A DNA stretch of 38,153 nucleotides from positions 1 through 38,153 of IMG/VR virus record IMGVR_UViG_3300025012_000193. The stretch is one strand, 5' to 3'. Every line of letters starts with the position of its first letter. Position 1 is the first letter of the stretch. Below, one piece after another: positions 3,398 to 9,378 of this stretch. Source of the stretch: a virus. The notes below the pieces were generated by a model. That model searched no databases, was not told the origin of the DNA, and saw nothing but the letters and a program-made list of their open reading frames with translations. A program made the position numbers and the translations under genes.

Positions 3398-4543
3398 ATG
3401 GATGTAGCAATCTCGGAAATTGTCATCGGCAAACGGCACCGCAAGGACATGGGCGACATCCCCGCTTTGGCGGCAAGCATCGAGGCGGTGGGGTTACTGC
3501 ATCCCGTGGTTCTCCGCCCGGACAAGACGCTGGTTGTCGGAGCACGCCGTATTGCCGCCTATCGCCACTTGAAACGGGATTGTATTCCCGCACGCACGGC
3601 GACGAACCTATCCGAACTGGCTGATCTGTTGCGTGCCGAGGCCGACGAAAATGTCTGTCGACTGGACTTTGCTCCAACGGAAGCTGACGCCGTAATGCGC
3701 GCGATACTGCCGGGGTTGAGAGCCGAAGCAAAGCATGCCCAGGAAGAGGGAGGCAAAGCCGGGGCAAGTAAAGGCGGAAAGATGGCAGGAAAGGGACGCC
3801 AGAAGATAGCCCCTAGCAAAACTTTAGCCAAGCGCAAAGACTCGCACGCCAAGCGGGCCCTTTCCATTGCCGCAGCCACCGTTGGAATCACGGCCCCCAC
3901 TGCCGCTAAGTTGATGGCGGTGGTCGATTCGGGCGACAAAGCCCTCATCGCTGAAATGGATCGCACTCGCAAAGTTTCGGGTGCCCACAAGAAGCTCGCT
4001 ATCCGTAAAGCAGTTGAGCAGATCGCCGCCGAACCGCCACCGTTGCCAAAGGGGCCCTTTCGCGTTATCGTGGCGGATCCCCCTTGGCGATATGAAAAAC
4101 GCCCCGACGATCCCAGTCATCGCGGATCGTGTCCGTACCCCACGATGACGGTTGAAGAGATCGCCGCCATGCCCATCGAGGGCCTTGCCACCAAGGACGC
4201 GGTTTTGTGGCTGTGGGTAACGAACGCTTTTTTGCCTGTTGTCTGGCCCATCGTGGAGGCGTGGGGCTTCACCTACAAGACGATGCTGACATGGGGGAAA
4301 CAAAAGATGGGAACTGGCGACTGGCTGAGAGGAAAAACAGAGCACTGTCTCATGTGCGTGAGAGGCAAGCCGACGATCAACCTCACGAATCAGACGACGC
4401 TTCTCCTGGCCGCTGCGCTGGCTCACTCCGCCAAGCCAAACGAGTTCTACGCCCTAGTCGAGGTCCTTTGCCCAGGCTCGAAGTTGGAACTTTTCCAGCG
4501 CGCGCCAAGAAAAAACTGGATCGGCCATGGGAACGAATCCTGA
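3398..4543 (+). CDS. ParB-like / MT-A70 fusion, DNA N6-adenine methyltransferase
   Basis: A 381-residue two-domain protein. Residues 1-60 form a ParB/Srx-type domain (ISEIVIGKRHRKDMGD, HPVVLRPDKTLVVGARR with the G-x-R-R box). A Lys/Ala-rich linker with helices spans about 110-210. Residues 215-378 are an MT-A70 methyltransferase with catalytic DPPW at 227-230 and the family signatures YPTMTVEEI, LWLWVTNAFLP and WGKQKMGTGDWLRGKTEH. The predicted reaction is transfer of methyl from S-adenosylmethionine to the N6 amino group of adenine in DNA. Such fusions are frequent in phages and likely protect phage DNA from host restriction. The 3' end overlaps the next gene by 17 bases. Confidence 0.92.
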   Translation: MDVAISEIVIGKRHRKDMGDIPALAASIEAVGLLHPVVLRPDKTLVVGARRIAAYRHLKRDCIPARTATNLSELADLLRAEADENVCRLDFAPTEADAVMRAILPGLRAEAKHAQEEGGKAGASKGGKMAGKGRQKIAPSKTLAKRKDSHAKRALSIAAATVGITAPTAAKLMAVVDSGDKALIAEMDRTRKVSGAHKKLAIRKAVEQIAAEPPPLPKGPFRVIVADPPWRYEKRPDDPSHRGSCPYPTMTVEEIAAMPIEGLATKDAVLWLWVTNAFLPVVWPIVEAWGFTYKTMLTWGKQKMGTGDWLRGKTEHCLMCVRGKPTINLTNQTTLLLAAALAHSAKPNEFYALVEVLCPGSKLELFQRAPRKNWIGHGNES

Positions 4544-5135
4544 TTTTTACGACACGCCAGAATGGCAACTCGGCGATGAAGCCCAGAAGCGATGGGCAAT
4601 TGCAATCGCTCGCCGTGGGCACGCTGTCCTCCCGTCCTATGAAATGGGACAAACCTCGCCGGAGACAAAAGCTCCGATGATGTTTACCGCCGATGGCCGT
4701 TTGGTAATACCTGATCTTCTCGTGCTCAACAGCAAAAAGCCTCCTCAGTGGCACGAAGTGAAGGCCAAGACCGCCCCGACGTGGCGGATATACAAGTCAA
4801 AAGACTGCAAGTGCTGGCGTGGCCCACGATGGGAGCATGGGATCGACTATGCCCTTATGACTGAATATAGGCGGGTTGCTGACTTATCCGGCGCTCCCGT
4901 CTATCTCGTCATTCACGAACCGCACAGCCCAAAACACCCCACCGCAGAATCACCGTTATCGGGGCCAGAGACATGGTTGCTTATCAGCTTGGAGAACGCG
5001 GAGCGCTTTGGAGATCGCCGAGAAGACTGGCCCGGTGGCAGCAAGGAACCTAATCGCCGTGGCCGTTGCCGACAAGGTGGATGGCTGTGGTCCCGAAACG
5101 TGATGACACCGATCCCGTTTGAAGTACCTGGATGA
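4527..5135 (+). CDS. PD-(D/E)XK-like nuclease, Holliday-junction-resolvase type
   Basis: A 202-residue protein whose core carries a PD-x(n)-E-x-K signature: RLVIPDLLVL, then QWHEVKAKTAP. This is the active-site arrangement of phage VRR/DUF-type and archaeal resolvase-like nucleases, which bind a metal through Asp and Glu and use Lys for catalysis. Residues 20-45 (EAQKRWAIAIARRGHAVLP) match the leading helix seen in that fold. The last 40 residues are Arg/Gly-rich and probably disordered. It begins inside the methyltransferase gene and ends at an ATGA junction with a small ORF. A nuclease beside an adenine methyltransferase could be a recombination enzyme or part of a modification-linked cleavage system; the former is more usual in phages. 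Confidence 0.7.
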   Translation: MGTNPDFYDTPEWQLGDEAQKRWAIAIARRGHAVLPSYEMGQTSPETKAPMMFTADGRLVIPDLLVLNSKKPPQWHEVKAKTAPTWRIYKSKDCKCWRGPRWEHGIDYALMTEYRRVADLSGAPVYLVIHEPHSPKHPTAESPLSGPETWLLISLENAERFGDRREDWPGGSKEPNRRGRCRQGGWLWSRNVMTPIPFEVPG

Positions 5136-5251
5136 ACCAGCAAACCGCTCCAAGCCCGGTCGGGAGCGTAAAGGCCGCGACAGCCGCGAGCCGGGCGGCG
5201 ATAGGCAAGACGACCGAATGCGCGGCCAGCCAGGGCAAAGTTGAAAGATGA
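5132..5251 (+). CDS. Small ORF (39 aa) locked between two ATGA junctions
   Basis: A 39-residue Ala/Lys/Ser-rich ORF that starts with the ATG of an ATGA overlap with the nuclease gene and ends with the TGA of an ATGA overlap with the HNH gene. Having both ends precisely coupled makes translation likely even though the peptide is short and matches no family. Its composition suggests a disordered basic peptide. Confidence 0.5.
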   Translation: MNQQTAPSPVGSVKAATAASRAAIGKTTECAASQGKVER

Positions 5252-6356: not shown

Positions 6357-7402
6357 GGGCTATGCGGAATCTTAGTCTGTTCACGGGTAGCGGCATCGGA
6401 GACTATGCCGCGAAACAAGCGGGAATCACCACTGTCGCCCAGTGCGAGAACGATCCGGCTTGCCAGTTTGCCTTGCGTAAACTGTGGCCTGAGTGCTACC
6501 TATTCGGAAACGTGAAGGATGTATCAGCCAAGTCTCTTTGGGAACGTGGGCTTTGGCCCATTGACATCATCAGCGGCGGATTCCCGTGTACGGACATCTC
6601 CACGGCCGGCAGAGGCACGGGCATTGAGGGCAGCCGCTCGGGTCTATGGCGAGAGATGTTCCGGGTTATCCGCCAAGTCCGACCTGCTTGGCTGGTTGTG
6701 GAGAACGTATCTGTTATCCGTGTGCGAGGCGTCGACCGGGTTCTTGCTCCGCTGGAGAGAATCGGCTACACCTGCTGGCCATTGGTGGTTGGTTCTTGGT
6801 CGGTCGGAGCCCCGCACAAAAGGGATCGGGTCTGGATCGTTGCGCGACGAATGGACGACGCCGACGAGACACGACGGACAACATGGGATGCAAACGGAGA
6901 AACGAGCAAACGATCCGAAGCACTTGGGGCAATGTCTACAGTACGACGTGAAGGTACTCTGGCCAACACCGGACGCTTCGGTGTTTCAGGAGGGCGAGTC
7001 GCCCGAGACCTGGCTTGCCAGGCGGGAGCAACTGAAACAGACGGCGAACAACGGGAACGGCTGCGGGACTCCGCTGGCGATGGCGGTGCAACTGGAGAAC
7101 TGGGGAACGCCCCGAGTGACGAACAAGTTAGTCGCTGGCCAAGTCGCCCCGACGAGCCCCAGCACGCCTGGGAAGCCCCGAGGCTCATTGAATTCGGCGT
7201 GGGTGCGGAGCCTAATGGGCTGGCCGGACGAATACTGGCAAGCCTTGGAAGCGGCGGTAACGGAATACCACCTCACAAAGCCGCCAGCCGGGCGAACAAG
7301 AGCCTCTTGAAAATCATCGGAAATGGGTGGCAGTTTGAGATACCGGCGATGATTTACAGGTGGATTGTGGAACAGAATGCCGCCTTGCGTGACCCGGAAT
7401 GA
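6353..7402 (+). CDS. C5-cytosine DNA methyltransferase (Dcm-like)
   Basis: A 349-residue protein with the ordered motifs of C5-cytosine methyltransferases: motif I LSLFTGSGIGDYAA, motif IV GGFPCTDIS with the catalytic Cys at residue 79, motif VI VVENV (117-119), motif VIII VGAPHKRDRVWIVA and a C-terminal IIGNGWQFEIP resembling motif X. It transfers methyl from S-adenosylmethionine to carbon 5 of cytosine. The variable stretch between about residues 165 and 310, where target recognition should lie, is low-complexity in feel and is also open in a second frame (see 6519-7310). The start at 6353 overlaps the previous stop; an ATG nine bases later is an alternative. It likely protects phage DNA from restriction. 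Confidence 0.92.
   Translation: MRAMRNLSLFTGSGIGDYAAKQAGITTVAQCENDPACQFALRKLWPECYLFGNVKDVSAKSLWERGLWPIDIISGGFPCTDISTAGRGTGIEGSRSGLWREMFRVIRQVRPAWLVVENVSVIRVRGVDRVLAPLERIGYTCWPLVVGSWSVGAPHKRDRVWIVARRMDDADETRRTTWDANGETSKRSEALGAMSTVRREGTLANTGRFGVSGGRVARDLACQAGATETDGEQRERLRDSAGDGGATGELGNAPSDEQVSRWPSRPDEPQHAWEAPRLIEFGVGAEPNGLAGRILASLGSGGNGIPPHKAASRANKSLLKIIGNGWQFEIPAMIYRWIVEQNAALRDPE
6519..7310 (+). CDS. Overprinted ORF inside the cytosine methyltransferase gene
   Basis: A 263-codon frame lies wholly inside the methyltransferase gene in another + strand frame. It starts MYQPSLFGNVGFGP and contains LLRWRESATPAGHWWLVLG, RTKGIGSGS, VLWPTPDAS, NGNGCGTPLAMAVQ and GSLNSAWVRSLMGWPDEYW. From memory these segments match the order of a family of phage and bacterial proteins that have SLF-like starts, W-P-T-P repeats and an L-N-P-x-W-V-E-x-L-M-G-x-P ending and that occur next to cytosine methyltransferases. 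The first third is necessarily shaped by the methyltransferase catalytic motifs, but the last third overlaps a variable region and still keeps the pattern. No strong ribosome-binding site is seen. Confidence 0.5.
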   Translation: MYQPSLFGNVGFGPLTSSAADSRVRTSPRPAEARALRAAARVYGERCSGLSAKSDLLGWLWRTYLLSVCEASTGFLLRWRESATPAGHWWLVLGRSEPRTKGIGSGSLRDEWTTPTRHDGQHGMQTEKRANDPKHLGQCLQYDVKVLWPTPDASVFQEGESPETWLARREQLKQTANNGNGCGTPLAMAVQLENWGTPRVTNKLVAGQVAPTSPSTPGKPRGSLNSAWVRSLMGWPDEYWQALEAAVTEYHLTKPPAGRTRAS

Positions 7403-7560: not shown

Positions 7561-8486
7561 TGGCAGCGGCAGACACAGAACGAGAGTGGCAACGGGTAAG
7601 CAAGGCCGAGCCTTGCCCGATTTGTTCGCACGATTCATGGTGCCGAATCGGGACAAAGGTGGTCCACTGTAATCGGGTTGAGAGTGCGAAGCCAGCGAAG
7701 GGCGGCGGTTGGTATCACCCGCGCACCGACGCAGTTTCACCCCTCCCAGAGATCCACCGCAAGAGACCGCTACCGAAGACAGACGAGGAACTGGATAGCC
7801 GATACCATGTGATGATGGATCGCTGGTACGGAAGTTCTCCTGAGAAGCTGACGGAGCTAGCCCGCCTGTTTGGTGTTAGCGCGACGAGTCTGGACGCACT
7901 CGGCGTCGGGTGGAACGGGTGTTGTTGGGCCATCCCCGAGCGAAGCCCGTCTGGCATGATAACTGACATCAGCATGCGGGCGGTAGATGGCGCGAAGTGG
8001 ATGGTCACCGGCGGTCGACGCGGGCTTGTCTATGCCGATGGTTTCGTGCGTGTTTCGTCGCATTCGATTCTGATCGTCGAGGGCATGAGCGACACGGCCG
8101 CCGCGATGACGCTTGGCTTGGCGGCCATCGGACGGCCGAGTAACTGCACGGGCGGAAAGATGCTGGCCGAATTGCTTCGCGGATGGCAGGGAAAAATCAT
8201 CGTCATGGGAGAAAACGATCGGCGGGAGCCGAAGCCGATTCCTGGCTTTCCTCATCGTGCCTATTGCAACGGATGCCAGCGATGCTGGCCGGGCCAGTAC
8301 GGTATGATGGTTGTGGCGAAAGCCCTGAGAAAAACACTTATTGGCCGTTCTGTGCTGACTCGTTTTCCGCCAAAGGGAGCCAAGGACCTGCGATCATGGG
8401 CCAATGGAGCAATCCGCGATCCTGAGAATGCTGTTGCATGTGCTGCCGTGGGGCAAAGCCTGTTGCGGCAAATCGGTGTGCGGTAA
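7557..8486 (+). CDS. Primase-like protein with zinc finger and Toprim domain
   Basis: The ATG at 7557 is preferred because it forms an ATGA junction with the previous ORF and because the upstream extension of the frame is Arg/Pro-rich shadow sequence. The 309-residue product has an N-terminal zinc-binding segment (PCPICSHDSWCR, then VVHCNRV) and a central Toprim domain (SHSILIVEGMSDTAAAM, then KIIVMGENDRR) with the Glu and Asp that hold magnesium. A second Cys cluster (YCNGCQRCWPG) lies inside the Toprim region. This is the layout of phage primases or primase-helicase N-terminal halves that make RNA primers for replication; no helicase domain is fused. The helicase at the window start may be its partner. 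Confidence 0.8.
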   Translation: MMAAADTEREWQRVSKAEPCPICSHDSWCRIGTKVVHCNRVESAKPAKGGGWYHPRTDAVSPLPEIHRKRPLPKTDEELDSRYHVMMDRWYGSSPEKLTELARLFGVSATSLDALGVGWNGCCWAIPERSPSGMITDISMRAVDGAKWMVTGGRRGLVYADGFVRVSSHSILIVEGMSDTAAAMTLGLAAIGRPSNCTGGKMLAELLRGWQGKIIVMGENDRREPKPIPGFPHRAYCNGCQRCWPGQYGMMVVAKALRKTLIGRSVLTRFPPKGAKDLRSWANGAIRDPENAVACAAVGQSLLRQIGVR

Positions 8487-8517: not shown

Positions 8518-8871
8518 ATGAAACGACTCCGGGTGTATATCGCCAGCCCATATTCCAAGCCAGATCCGTGTATCAATACGCGAGAGGCAATTGATGCTGC
8601 GAATCATCTCTTGGGTGGCGGGCTCATTCCTTTCGTTCCGCACTTGGCCCACTTTTGGCATACGGTTACCCCCAAACCATACGAAGAATGGCTCGCATAC
8701 GATGACGCTTGGATCGACGTATGCGACGCCATGCTTAGGCTACCGGGCGAATCAAGCGGGGCCGACCGGGAGACGGCGAAGGCCAAGGCGTTGGGTATTC
8801 CGGTGTTCGAGACGTTCAAGGACTTATTTGCGTGGCAAAAGGCTGCCCTCGCCCGCGAAAAGACGGCTTGA
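8518..8871 (+). CDS. DUF4406/DUF1937-like nucleoside deoxyribosyltransferase-fold protein
   Basis: A 117-residue protein starting MKRLRVYIASPYSKPD, with NTREAIDAANHLL, LIPFVPHLAHFWH, YDDAWIDVCDAMLRLPGES and a closing LGIPVFETF. This succession is typical of the small nucleoside 2-deoxyribosyltransferase-like proteins (DUF4406/DUF1937) common in phages, which are thought to act on nucleotides or nucleotide sugars. AAAGGA lies before the ATG. Its last codons contain the -35 box of the promoter at 8868. Confidence 0.8.
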   Translation: MKRLRVYIASPYSKPDPCINTREAIDAANHLLGGGLIPFVPHLAHFWHTVTPKPYEEWLAYDDAWIDVCDAMLRLPGESSGADRETAKAKALGIPVFETFKDLFAWQKAALAREKTA

Positions 8872-8895
8872 CTCGCGTAGAACCTGTGGTATAAT
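8868..8895 (+). promoter_or_regulatory. Strong sigma70-type promoter with extended -10
   Basis: TTGACT (8868-8873), 16 bases, then a perfect TATAAT (8890-8895) preceded by TGG, an extended -10 element. Predicted transcription starts near 8902. It drives the tRNA-like element at 8978-9101 and the XRE regulator gene at 9123. It is the best promoter by eye in the window. Confidence 0.75.
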
Positions 8896-8942
8896 GCGAC
8901 GTATTCGGTATCTGCGAAATCCAACCGTGAAGGCTAGTATCG

Positions 8943-8959
8943 AAAGGGAAGAGATTTGA
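8943..8959 (+). repeat. Left copy of a 17-base direct repeat flanking the tRNA-like element
   Basis: AAAGGGAAGAGATTTGA here and AAAGGGAAGAGAGTTGA at 9110-9126 differ at one position. Each contains a purine-rich ribosome-binding site followed at the same spacing by a TTG. The right copy initiates the XRE gene; the left copy would initiate a 22-codon ORF (8956-9024, MSYWGEVWSGG...) that runs into the tRNA-like element. Confidence 0.7.
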
Positions 8960-9024
8960 GTTATTGGGGCGAAGTTTGGAGCGGCGGCGTGAAAGAGCAC
9001 GCTAGGACAAGTGATCGGCTGTGA
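8956..9024 (+). CDS. Possible short leader ORF (22 aa)
   Basis: TTG-started ORF behind the left copy of the duplicated ribosome-binding site, encoding a 22-residue peptide that ends inside the central arm of the tRNA-like fold. If translated, ribosomes would disturb that RNA, so it could be a regulatory leader. No homology is recognised. Confidence 0.25.
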   Translation: MSYWGEVWSGGVKEHARTSDRL

Positions 9025-9101
9025 CGTATCTTGGAAATGCGAAATGACCAGCCTGGAGTCCGAGTAACCTATACCAGCCGGTGCAATTCCGGCCCGCTCC
9101 A
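8978..9101 (+). ncRNA. tRNA-like structured RNA with an extended central arm
   Basis: A perfect 7-bp acceptor-like stem joins GGAGCGG (8978-8984) and CCGCTCC (9094-9100). Stacked directly on it is a 5-bp T-arm, GCCGG (9077-9081) with CCGGC (9089-9093), around a 7-base loop TGCAATT that differs from the T-loop consensus mainly at its second base. A D-like arm GCGT/ACGC (8987-8990, 8999-9002) follows the acceptor at the normal distance. In place of a 17-base anticodon arm there is a long stacked arm: GGAC/GTCC (9005-9008, 9058-9061), GGCTG/CAGCC (9017-9021, 9049-9053) and CGTAT/ATGCG (9025-9029, 9037-9041) capped by loop CTTGGAA, which would place a UGG (proline) anticodon. The D-loop lacks GG and no CCA is encoded. 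It is too long for an ordinary tRNA, so it may be a tRNA mimic or a decayed tRNA. Confidence 0.55.
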
Positions 9102-9109
9102 CTATATAC

Positions 9110-9126
9110 AAAGGGAAGAGAGTTGA
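9110..9126 (+). repeat. Right copy of the 17-base direct repeat
   Basis: One mismatch from 8943-8959. This copy supplies the ribosome-binding site GGGAAGAG and the TTG start of the XRE gene. Confidence 0.7.
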
Positions 9127-9338
9127 CACCACAGATACTTCAGCCACGGTTCGGCGAACGGCTCAAACTGGCCAGAGCAAGATCGAAGCTGACGCAGCGT
9201 GAAGCGGCGAAGCGGGCGAACATCATCCCCATGTATTTGTGCACGTTGGAAAAAGGGACGGCCGTGCCAAGCATGGACTGTGCGGCCCGGTTGGCGGACG
9301 TGTTGGGGACAAGTCTGGCGTGGTTAGTGAAGGTGTAA
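9123..9338 (+). CDS. XRE-family helix-turn-helix regulator
   Basis: A 71-residue protein with TTG start, chosen because AAAGGGAAGAGAG lies directly upstream; the open frame further up runs through the tRNA-like element. Residues 10-65 are a complete lambda-Cro/XRE helix-turn-helix: FGERLKLARARSKLTQREAA, then LCTLEKGTAVPSMDCAARLA and LGTSLAWLV. It probably binds operators near the 8868 promoter and regulates early genes, perhaps including itself. It is the only Cro/CI-like protein visible. Confidence 0.88.
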   Translation: MTPQILQPRFGERLKLARARSKLTQREAAKRANIIPMYLCTLEKGTAVPSMDCAARLADVLGTSLAWLVKV

Positions 9339-9378
9339 CGCGAAATGACCCATATTGATTCGAGAAAGGAACCGAGCA

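What the first reader, a model, noticed from the sequence alone, without database searches (positions are those of the whole stretch)
8978..9101. tRNA-like RNA with an elongated anticodon-position arm
Acceptor (7 bp) and T-arm (5 bp, 7-base loop) pair perfectly and stack directly, and a D-like arm is at the normal place, but the central arm is about 57 bases long and ends in a loop with U33 and a UGG triplet. A strong extended -10 promoter stands upstream. Length, missing GG in the D-loop and missing CCA argue against an ordinary tRNA. It may be a tRNA mimic acting on host tRNA enzymes, anticodon nucleases or the ribosome, or a leader of the XRE gene.
Basis: partly seen in the sequence, partly recalled or inferred. 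Interest (0 to 1): 0.7.

Follow-up and report, generated by a model that had tools for sequence, protein, structure and literature searches.

The report
tRNA-like phage RNA with swappable core
This short stretch of a virus genome encodes a small RNA built like a transfer RNA at both ends but with an unrelated, exchangeable folded piece where the code-reading arm should be; it belongs to a large, apparently undescribed family carried by environmental bacterial viruses.

Summary
The tRNA-like element is real. Window 8977-9101 has an 8-bp acceptor stem (U-1:A73 plus 7 bp), a CG linker, a 5-bp D-like hairpin and a perfect T-arm. A covariance model built from 39 relatives, with the window left out, finds it at 55.1 bits, E 1.5e-13. 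More than 100 distinct members were recovered from uncultivated phage contigs. All three scaffold stems covary (95.8% of cells paired, 142 double-change cells; slid controls collapse). The family is not matched by Rfam and was not found in 50,697 phage records or in plasmids. Members cluster with genuine tRNA genes, always on the same strand at short range: 9 of 126 lie within 40 nt, against 0.5 expected. Seven of 72 tabulated members encode CCA.

No anticodon arm exists across the family, and the window's centre folds no better than shuffles. The centre (29-350 nt) instead comes in discrete structured types, exchanged between phages.

Best reading: a phage effector RNA in a tRNA-like scaffold that host tRNA enzymes mature and stabilise, with the exchangeable core doing the work. 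Processing and target are inferred, not shown. It is not a specific leader of the XRE gene.

The parts
8868..8895 (+). sigma-70 promoter TTGACT-16-TATAAT with extended -10 (TG at 8887-8888), overlapping the end of the upstream gene
   Evidence: 11 of 12 matches; best of 124 upstream regions, z 5.4
8938..8959 (+). upstream copy of a 22-nt direct repeat (Shine-Dalgarno plus TTG start); a 22-residue leader ORF with this start runs 8956-9024 into the RNA
   Evidence: only two copies in the window, 0.23 expected; sequence read directly
8977..8984 (+). acceptor stem, 5' strand (U-1 plus GGAGCGG)
   Evidence: alignment; covariation of this helix in the family
8985..8986 (+). CG linker, conserved in 68 of 72 tabulated members
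8987..9002 (+). D-like hairpin GCGUG-AAAGAG-CACGC (family consensus loop GACAGUGA)
   Evidence: ensemble pair probability 0.98-0.99
9077..9093 (+). T-arm GCCGG-UGCAAUU-CCGGC
9094..9101 (+). acceptor stem, 3' strand CCGCUCC plus discriminator A; no CCA encoded
9105..9126 (+). downstream copy of the direct repeat; Shine-Dalgarno and TTG start of the XRE gene
9123..9338 (+). small HTH (XRE-like) regulator gene, probably co-transcribed with the RNA; not a conserved partner

Best explanation
The element is a stand-alone phage noncoding RNA, here called TLR. It has the acceptor stem, D-like hairpin and T-arm of a tRNA, but the anticodon arm is replaced by an exchangeable structured core. Inferred working: it is made as part of a phage transcript, alone or inside a tRNA array. 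Host tRNA enzymes cut it out (RNase P behind U-1, 3' trimming to A73, CCA added where not encoded), which leaves a stable tRNA-sized RNA. The scaffold supplies maturation and stability, and the core binds a host or defence factor. Competition over that target would explain why cores are swapped between phages while the scaffold is kept. Shown here: the family, its covarying scaffold, its place among tRNA genes, the discrete core types with compensatory changes, and the exchange of cores. Inferred: processing, stability, and the core as the active part. Target unknown.
For: Membership: R1 without the window hits 8976-9102 at 55.1 bits, E 1.5e-13. Scaffold: covariation score 0.55 against 0.15 shuffled and at most 0.10 slid; 8 of 9 acceptor pairs, 3 of 5 D pairs and 3 of 5 T pairs change on both sides. 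tRNA-like maturation: U at -1 in 57 of 72, A73 in 51 of 72, CCA encoded in 7 of 72. Nine of 126 members sit within 40 nt of a true tRNA against 0.5 expected, all on the same strand. Core: the last helix before the T-arm is enriched (mean z 0.66 over 83 centres). Type D has 4 double changes in one 7-bp hairpin; type C has 3 in one hairpin and 1 in a crossing helix GGUCA/UGACC; type G has 2 in GGUUA/UAACC. Exchange: L121, L274, L140 and L132 share 67-77% identical flanks but unrelated cores, while L055 and L120 share the core type of L031, and L023 that of L119, without detected flank homology. The acceptor keeps pairing but not sequence, so no synthetase identity is visible.
Against: No transcript, processing or target data exist. 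The window's own core is a singleton whose fold is no better than shuffled, so nothing about its core is shown. Its D-loop has 6 nt instead of 8. Most members encode no CCA. Most cores are too sparsely sampled for covariation, and conserved pseudoknots could not be separated from other helices statistically. No conserved upstream promoter is seen in the family.
Confidence: 0.5

Rival explanations
1. Decoy of tRNA: the elbow and acceptor end themselves are the active part, occupying host tRNA-binding enzymes (RNase P, CCA-adding enzyme, EF-Tu) or tRNA-cutting defence nucleases, and the core only varies to escape recognition.
For: The tRNA-like half is what is conserved. [quoted passage not shown]
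Against: No anticodon arm in the family: 1 of 98 against 0.6 expected. The acceptor has no sequence identity left. Discrete, compensated core types are shared between otherwise different phages, which a passive core would not need.
Confidence: 0.2
2. Antisense or guide RNA: the core base-pairs with phage or host mRNA and the scaffold only protects its ends.
For: Constant ends with a variable interior, two scaffold types; several copies with different cores in one phage (L128, L033, L016).
Against: Cores match their own phage genome antisense hardly better than other phages' genomes: mean excess 0.6 nt, driven largely by one 18-nt match next to a further weak copy in the same phage. Cores show compensatory helices, which argues for structure. 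Host targets could not be tested because hosts are unknown.
Confidence: 0.12
3. Cis-acting leader or processing element of the downstream gene (here XRE), for example controlling its expression by cleavage of the transcript.
For: In the window the RNA lies between a strong promoter and the XRE start, inside a duplicated Shine-Dalgarno region.
Against: Neighbours vary freely: terminase, portal, SSB, methyltransferases, kinases, tRNAs; HTH is rare. Several members are followed directly by a tRNA, not by a coding gene.
Confidence: 0.06
4. Degenerate or intron-carrying tRNA that would still decode after splicing.
For: Near tRNAs; one member (L100) holds a tRNA-like segment in its core.
Against: Helices closing the core start at variable offsets, not at anticodon positions. 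Linker CG instead of U8 A9; ARAGORN and the Rfam tRNA model do not match. The D-hairpin is constant and covaries, unlike decay.
Confidence: 0.04

Closest known systems
Bacteriophage T4 stable RNAs C and D (species 1 and 2, rnaC and rnaD)
   Same: Small stable phage RNAs, 119-139 nt, encoded beside the phage tRNA cluster (function unknown, to my knowledge); rnaC carries a T-arm near its 3' end.
   Different: No match to the family model at E up to 10; no GCGUG-GACAGUGA-CACGC hairpin or CG linker; no exchange of cores known.
YrlA bacterial Y RNAs
   Same: tRNA-like domain without decoding function; proposed inhibitor of an anticodon nuclease (PMC7790460).
   Different: From general knowledge: the ends of YrlA lie in the Ro60-binding stem and it accompanies Ro60. 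Here the ends are at the acceptor and no such gene was seen nearby.
GOLLD and ROOL RNAs
   Same: Phage RNAs of unknown function near tRNA islands; GOLLD has conserved and less conserved regions and sometimes tRNAs inside (PMC12286853).
   Different: Many GOLLD RNAs exceed 800 nt (PMC12286853) and have other structures; no Rfam match here.
tmRNA
   Same: tRNA-like acceptor and T-arm around a long insert.
   Different: No tmRNA by ARAGORN, Rfam permuted tmRNA only 14.9 bits against a cut-off of 47; the D-like hairpin here is a true 5-bp stem, and core lengths vary freely, so no conserved tag frame is expected (not tested further).
Class II tRNAs and tRNA-Sec (8+5 acceptor/T helix)
   Same: 8+5 helix in 51 of 72 tabulated members and a helix directly before the T-arm, like a long variable arm.
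   Different: No anticodon arm, no U8/A9, no D-loop GG in the consensus.

Membership tests
TLR family defined here | covarying acceptor (7-8 bp), 5-bp D-like hairpin, 5-bp T-arm with UGCAAUU loop | tested here: met
   55.1 bits, E 1.5e-13 with a model that excluded the window
TLR family defined here | D-loop GACAGUGA (typical, not universal) | tested here: not met
   window has AAAGAG; other members with deviant loops exist (GUUUAGGGA, GAAGGAA, GUGGGAA), so it is not treated as a defining feature
Ordinary tRNA | anticodon arm of 5 bp with 7-nt loop at positions 27-43 | tested here: not met
   ARAGORN 0
Ordinary tRNA | match to the Rfam tRNA model | tested here: not met
Ordinary tRNA | aminoacylation | not testable with these tools
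   needs biochemistry
tmRNA | ARAGORN or Rfam tmRNA match | tested here: not met
T4 RNA C/D | sequence and structure homology to rnaC or rnaD | tested here: not met
   no hit at E up to 10 with R1
T4 RNA C/D | stable RNA made in infection | not testable with these tools
   needs RNA-seq or northern
YrlA Y RNA | Ro60-binding stem formed by the RNA ends, Ro60 gene in context | tested here: not met
   ends form the acceptor stem; no TROVE or Ro60 domain among the neighbour families shown (one search lists the top 25 of 31)
XRE leader or riboswitch | constant downstream gene family | tested here: not met
Phage tRNA counter-defence (against PrrC, retron-Eco7) | functional anticodon loop of the targeted tRNA | tested here: not met
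   the requirement for anticodon and stem-loops is reported for retron-Eco7 in PMC11555353

The most novel reading that the evidence does not exclude
Many environmental phages carry arrays of tRNA-like RNAs of at least two scaffold types, each holding an exchangeable folded core. They would be an RNA arsenal, comparable in role to sets of anti-defence proteins, that borrows the host's tRNA maturation for its production.
Probability: 0.35. Interest if true: 0.9.

Novelty: new variant of a known kind. Interest (0 to 1): 0.7.

Why it matters
tRNA-like stable RNAs of unknown function have been known beside phage tRNA genes since the T4 work, but without relatives their role is hard to study. This family has over a hundred members, a covarying scaffold and discrete core types, so it can be defined, annotated and tested. 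If the core is an effector, phages use the tRNA scaffold as an expression platform for functional RNAs. It also shows that phage 'tRNA clusters' can contain non-tRNA units that current annotation does not report.

Tried and rejected
Rfam at gathering and permissive thresholds and ARAGORN: nothing. Near relatives of the window phage through the neighbouring genes and terminase: one contig with an identical terminase (L184) is a fragment without this region, so no direct comparison of the window's core was possible. Pattern with the window's own D-arm: two hits, neither a member. Antisense to the own genome: negative. Common pseudoknot in the core: raw counts looked enriched, but conditional on the last helix a crossing helix is not preferred over other helices, so not claimed. 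Dedicated promoters across the family: none, although the window has one. Direct repeats flanking other members: essentially only the window and the duplicated L128. Apparent hits in Variovorax, Cereibacter and other GC-rich genomes from the genome scan are D-arm look-alikes without a T-arm. A hit in an isolate-numbered contig (L286) looks like coding DNA. Ascertainment: members were found by an exact T-arm or D-arm pattern, so conservation of the searched half is inflated; the other half is free in each search. The 72 tabulated members all have perfect stems by construction.

Full report
Observation. The window is a 38,153-base record of an uncultivated virus with terminase, portal and head-protease genes. 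Between a DUF7768 gene (8518-8871) and a small HTH gene (9123-9338) lies a 251-nt gap. It holds a near-perfect extended sigma-70 promoter at 8868-8895 and the element at 8977-9101. ARAGORN and Rfam report nothing there.

Family. The T-arm sequence GCCGGUGCAAUUCCGGC occurs in 105 stretches of the viral collection. Many of them share a layout not contained in the query: acceptor strand, CG, hairpin GCGUG-GACAGUGA-CACGC, a variable stretch, an A, the T-arm, and the acceptor's other strand. A search with the D-arm found further members whose T-stems differ by compensatory changes (GCAGG/CCUGC, GUCGG/CCGAC, GCACG/CGUGC). On 39 members without the window, 95.8% of cells in 19 pairs form standard pairs, 142 cells are changed on both sides, and the covariation score is 0.55, against 0.15 for shuffles and at most 0.10 for slid partners. 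The model R1 from these finds the window at 8976-9102 with 55.1 bits, E 1.5e-13. It finds over a hundred distinct members in all.

Distribution. A representative member has no match in 50,697 phage records or in 72,556 plasmid records; these were nucleotide comparisons and could miss divergent members. R1 fires in 1 of 143 Legionellales genomes, in no further genome of a class sample of 369, and in 3 of 294 Planctomycetota genomes. One of these lies on a 995-kb contig. The contigs in the Planctomycetota, Chloroflexi and Legionella bins found first carry tail-fibre and helicase-loader, RNA-ligase, or terminase and portal genes. The element is therefore phage-borne and rare in cellular genomes.

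tRNA-like maturation features. The acceptor has 7 or 8 bp. U precedes it in 57 of 72 tabulated members, A follows it in 51 of 72, and CCA is encoded in 7. Members lie within 40 nt of a true tRNA gene in 9 of 126 cases (0.5 expected, maximum 4 in 500 placements), always on the same strand. The acceptor keeps pairing but almost no sequence, which speaks against recognition by one particular synthetase. That RNase P and the CCA enzyme process it is an inference from these features.

The core. Its pairs are improbable in the ensemble, and across 98 distinct cores an anticodon-like arm at that place is found once (0.6 expected). What recurs is a helix ending one to three bases before the T-arm (mean z 0.66 over 83 cores). 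Cores fall into types. Phages with homologous flanks can carry unrelated cores, as L121, L274, L140 and L132 do. Contigs without detectable flank homology can carry the same core type, as L055 and L120 do with L031, and L023 does with L119. Within types, helices show compensatory changes: type D GAUUUGC/GCAAAUC, GACUCUU/GAGAGUC, GUCUCGU/GCGAGGC around a constant loop; type C AUUG/CAAU, AUCU/AGAU, GUCU/AGAC plus a crossing GGUCA/UGACC or GUUCA/UGAAC; type G GGUUA/UAACC and GAGUA/UACUC. These sets are small (two to four sequences). Cores are not antisense to their own genomes.

Context. The genes next to members differ from phage to phage, so the RNA is not a leader of one gene family. In the window the RNA is bracketed by a 22-nt direct repeat (19 of 22 identical) that contains the Shine-Dalgarno and TTG start of the HTH gene. 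This suggests that the unit was inserted with a duplication, or that the start region was duplicated around it; it is nearly unique in the family.

Mechanism. The most economical reading is a tRNA-like scaffold that gives processing and stability, with an exchangeable structured core as the active part. Conserved, swappable core types are what one expects of an effector under changing selection. The target is unknown. The strongest rival is a decoy in which the elbow and acceptor act by themselves.

Novelty. Phage RNAs of unknown function near tRNA genes are known (T4 RNA C and D; GOLLD and ROOL, PMC12286853), and tRNA-like domains in bacterial RNAs are known (YrlA, PMC7790460). This family matches none of those tested, and literature searches found no description. 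The paper library is incomplete, so an earlier description elsewhere cannot be excluded.

Noticed in passing
L075 (upstream of the member at 7678-7799, minus strand), L383 around 4000-5200, L384, L090 upstream of 3252: A second RNA-like unit with constant ends and variable interior: UUUAUGGCCGACGAUACU...(GGG)AAAAUAGGCCA, usually followed by CCA; ends pair, with variants in L010 (UGUCC/GGACG) and L038 (GAUCC/GGAUU). Its 5' pattern occurs in 39 viral stretches, several in arrays with TLR.
   Followed up: partly
L055 around 6459-6590 (minus), L041 1-130, L044 minus strand upstream of 4790, L033 minus strand upstream of 12096: Further CCA-ended units with acceptor-like end pairing that are neither recognised tRNA nor TLR, separated by GUUUA spacers.
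   Followed up: no
L007 minus strand, 4363-4466 and just downstream: A TLR-like unit with a canonical T-loop UUCGACU, followed by a tRNA-like sequence whose anticodon arm seems to have a shortened loop.
   Followed up: no
L100:3055-3250: A TLR inside a tRNA array whose core holds a tRNA-like segment (D-arm and T-arm).
   Followed up: no
window 8938-8959 and 9105-9126: 22-nt direct repeat carrying a Shine-Dalgarno and TTG start on both sides of the RNA; the upstream copy opens a 22-residue leader ORF (8956-9024) that runs into the RNA.
   Followed up: partly
window 9036-9049 and 9337-9350: 14-nt near-repeat (13 of 14) between the RNA's core and the start region of the gene after XRE; may be chance.
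   Followed up: no
L256:11523-12413 (minus): A phage RNA ligase gene near the TLR of a Chloroflexi-binned contig; the only such case seen.
   Followed up: no
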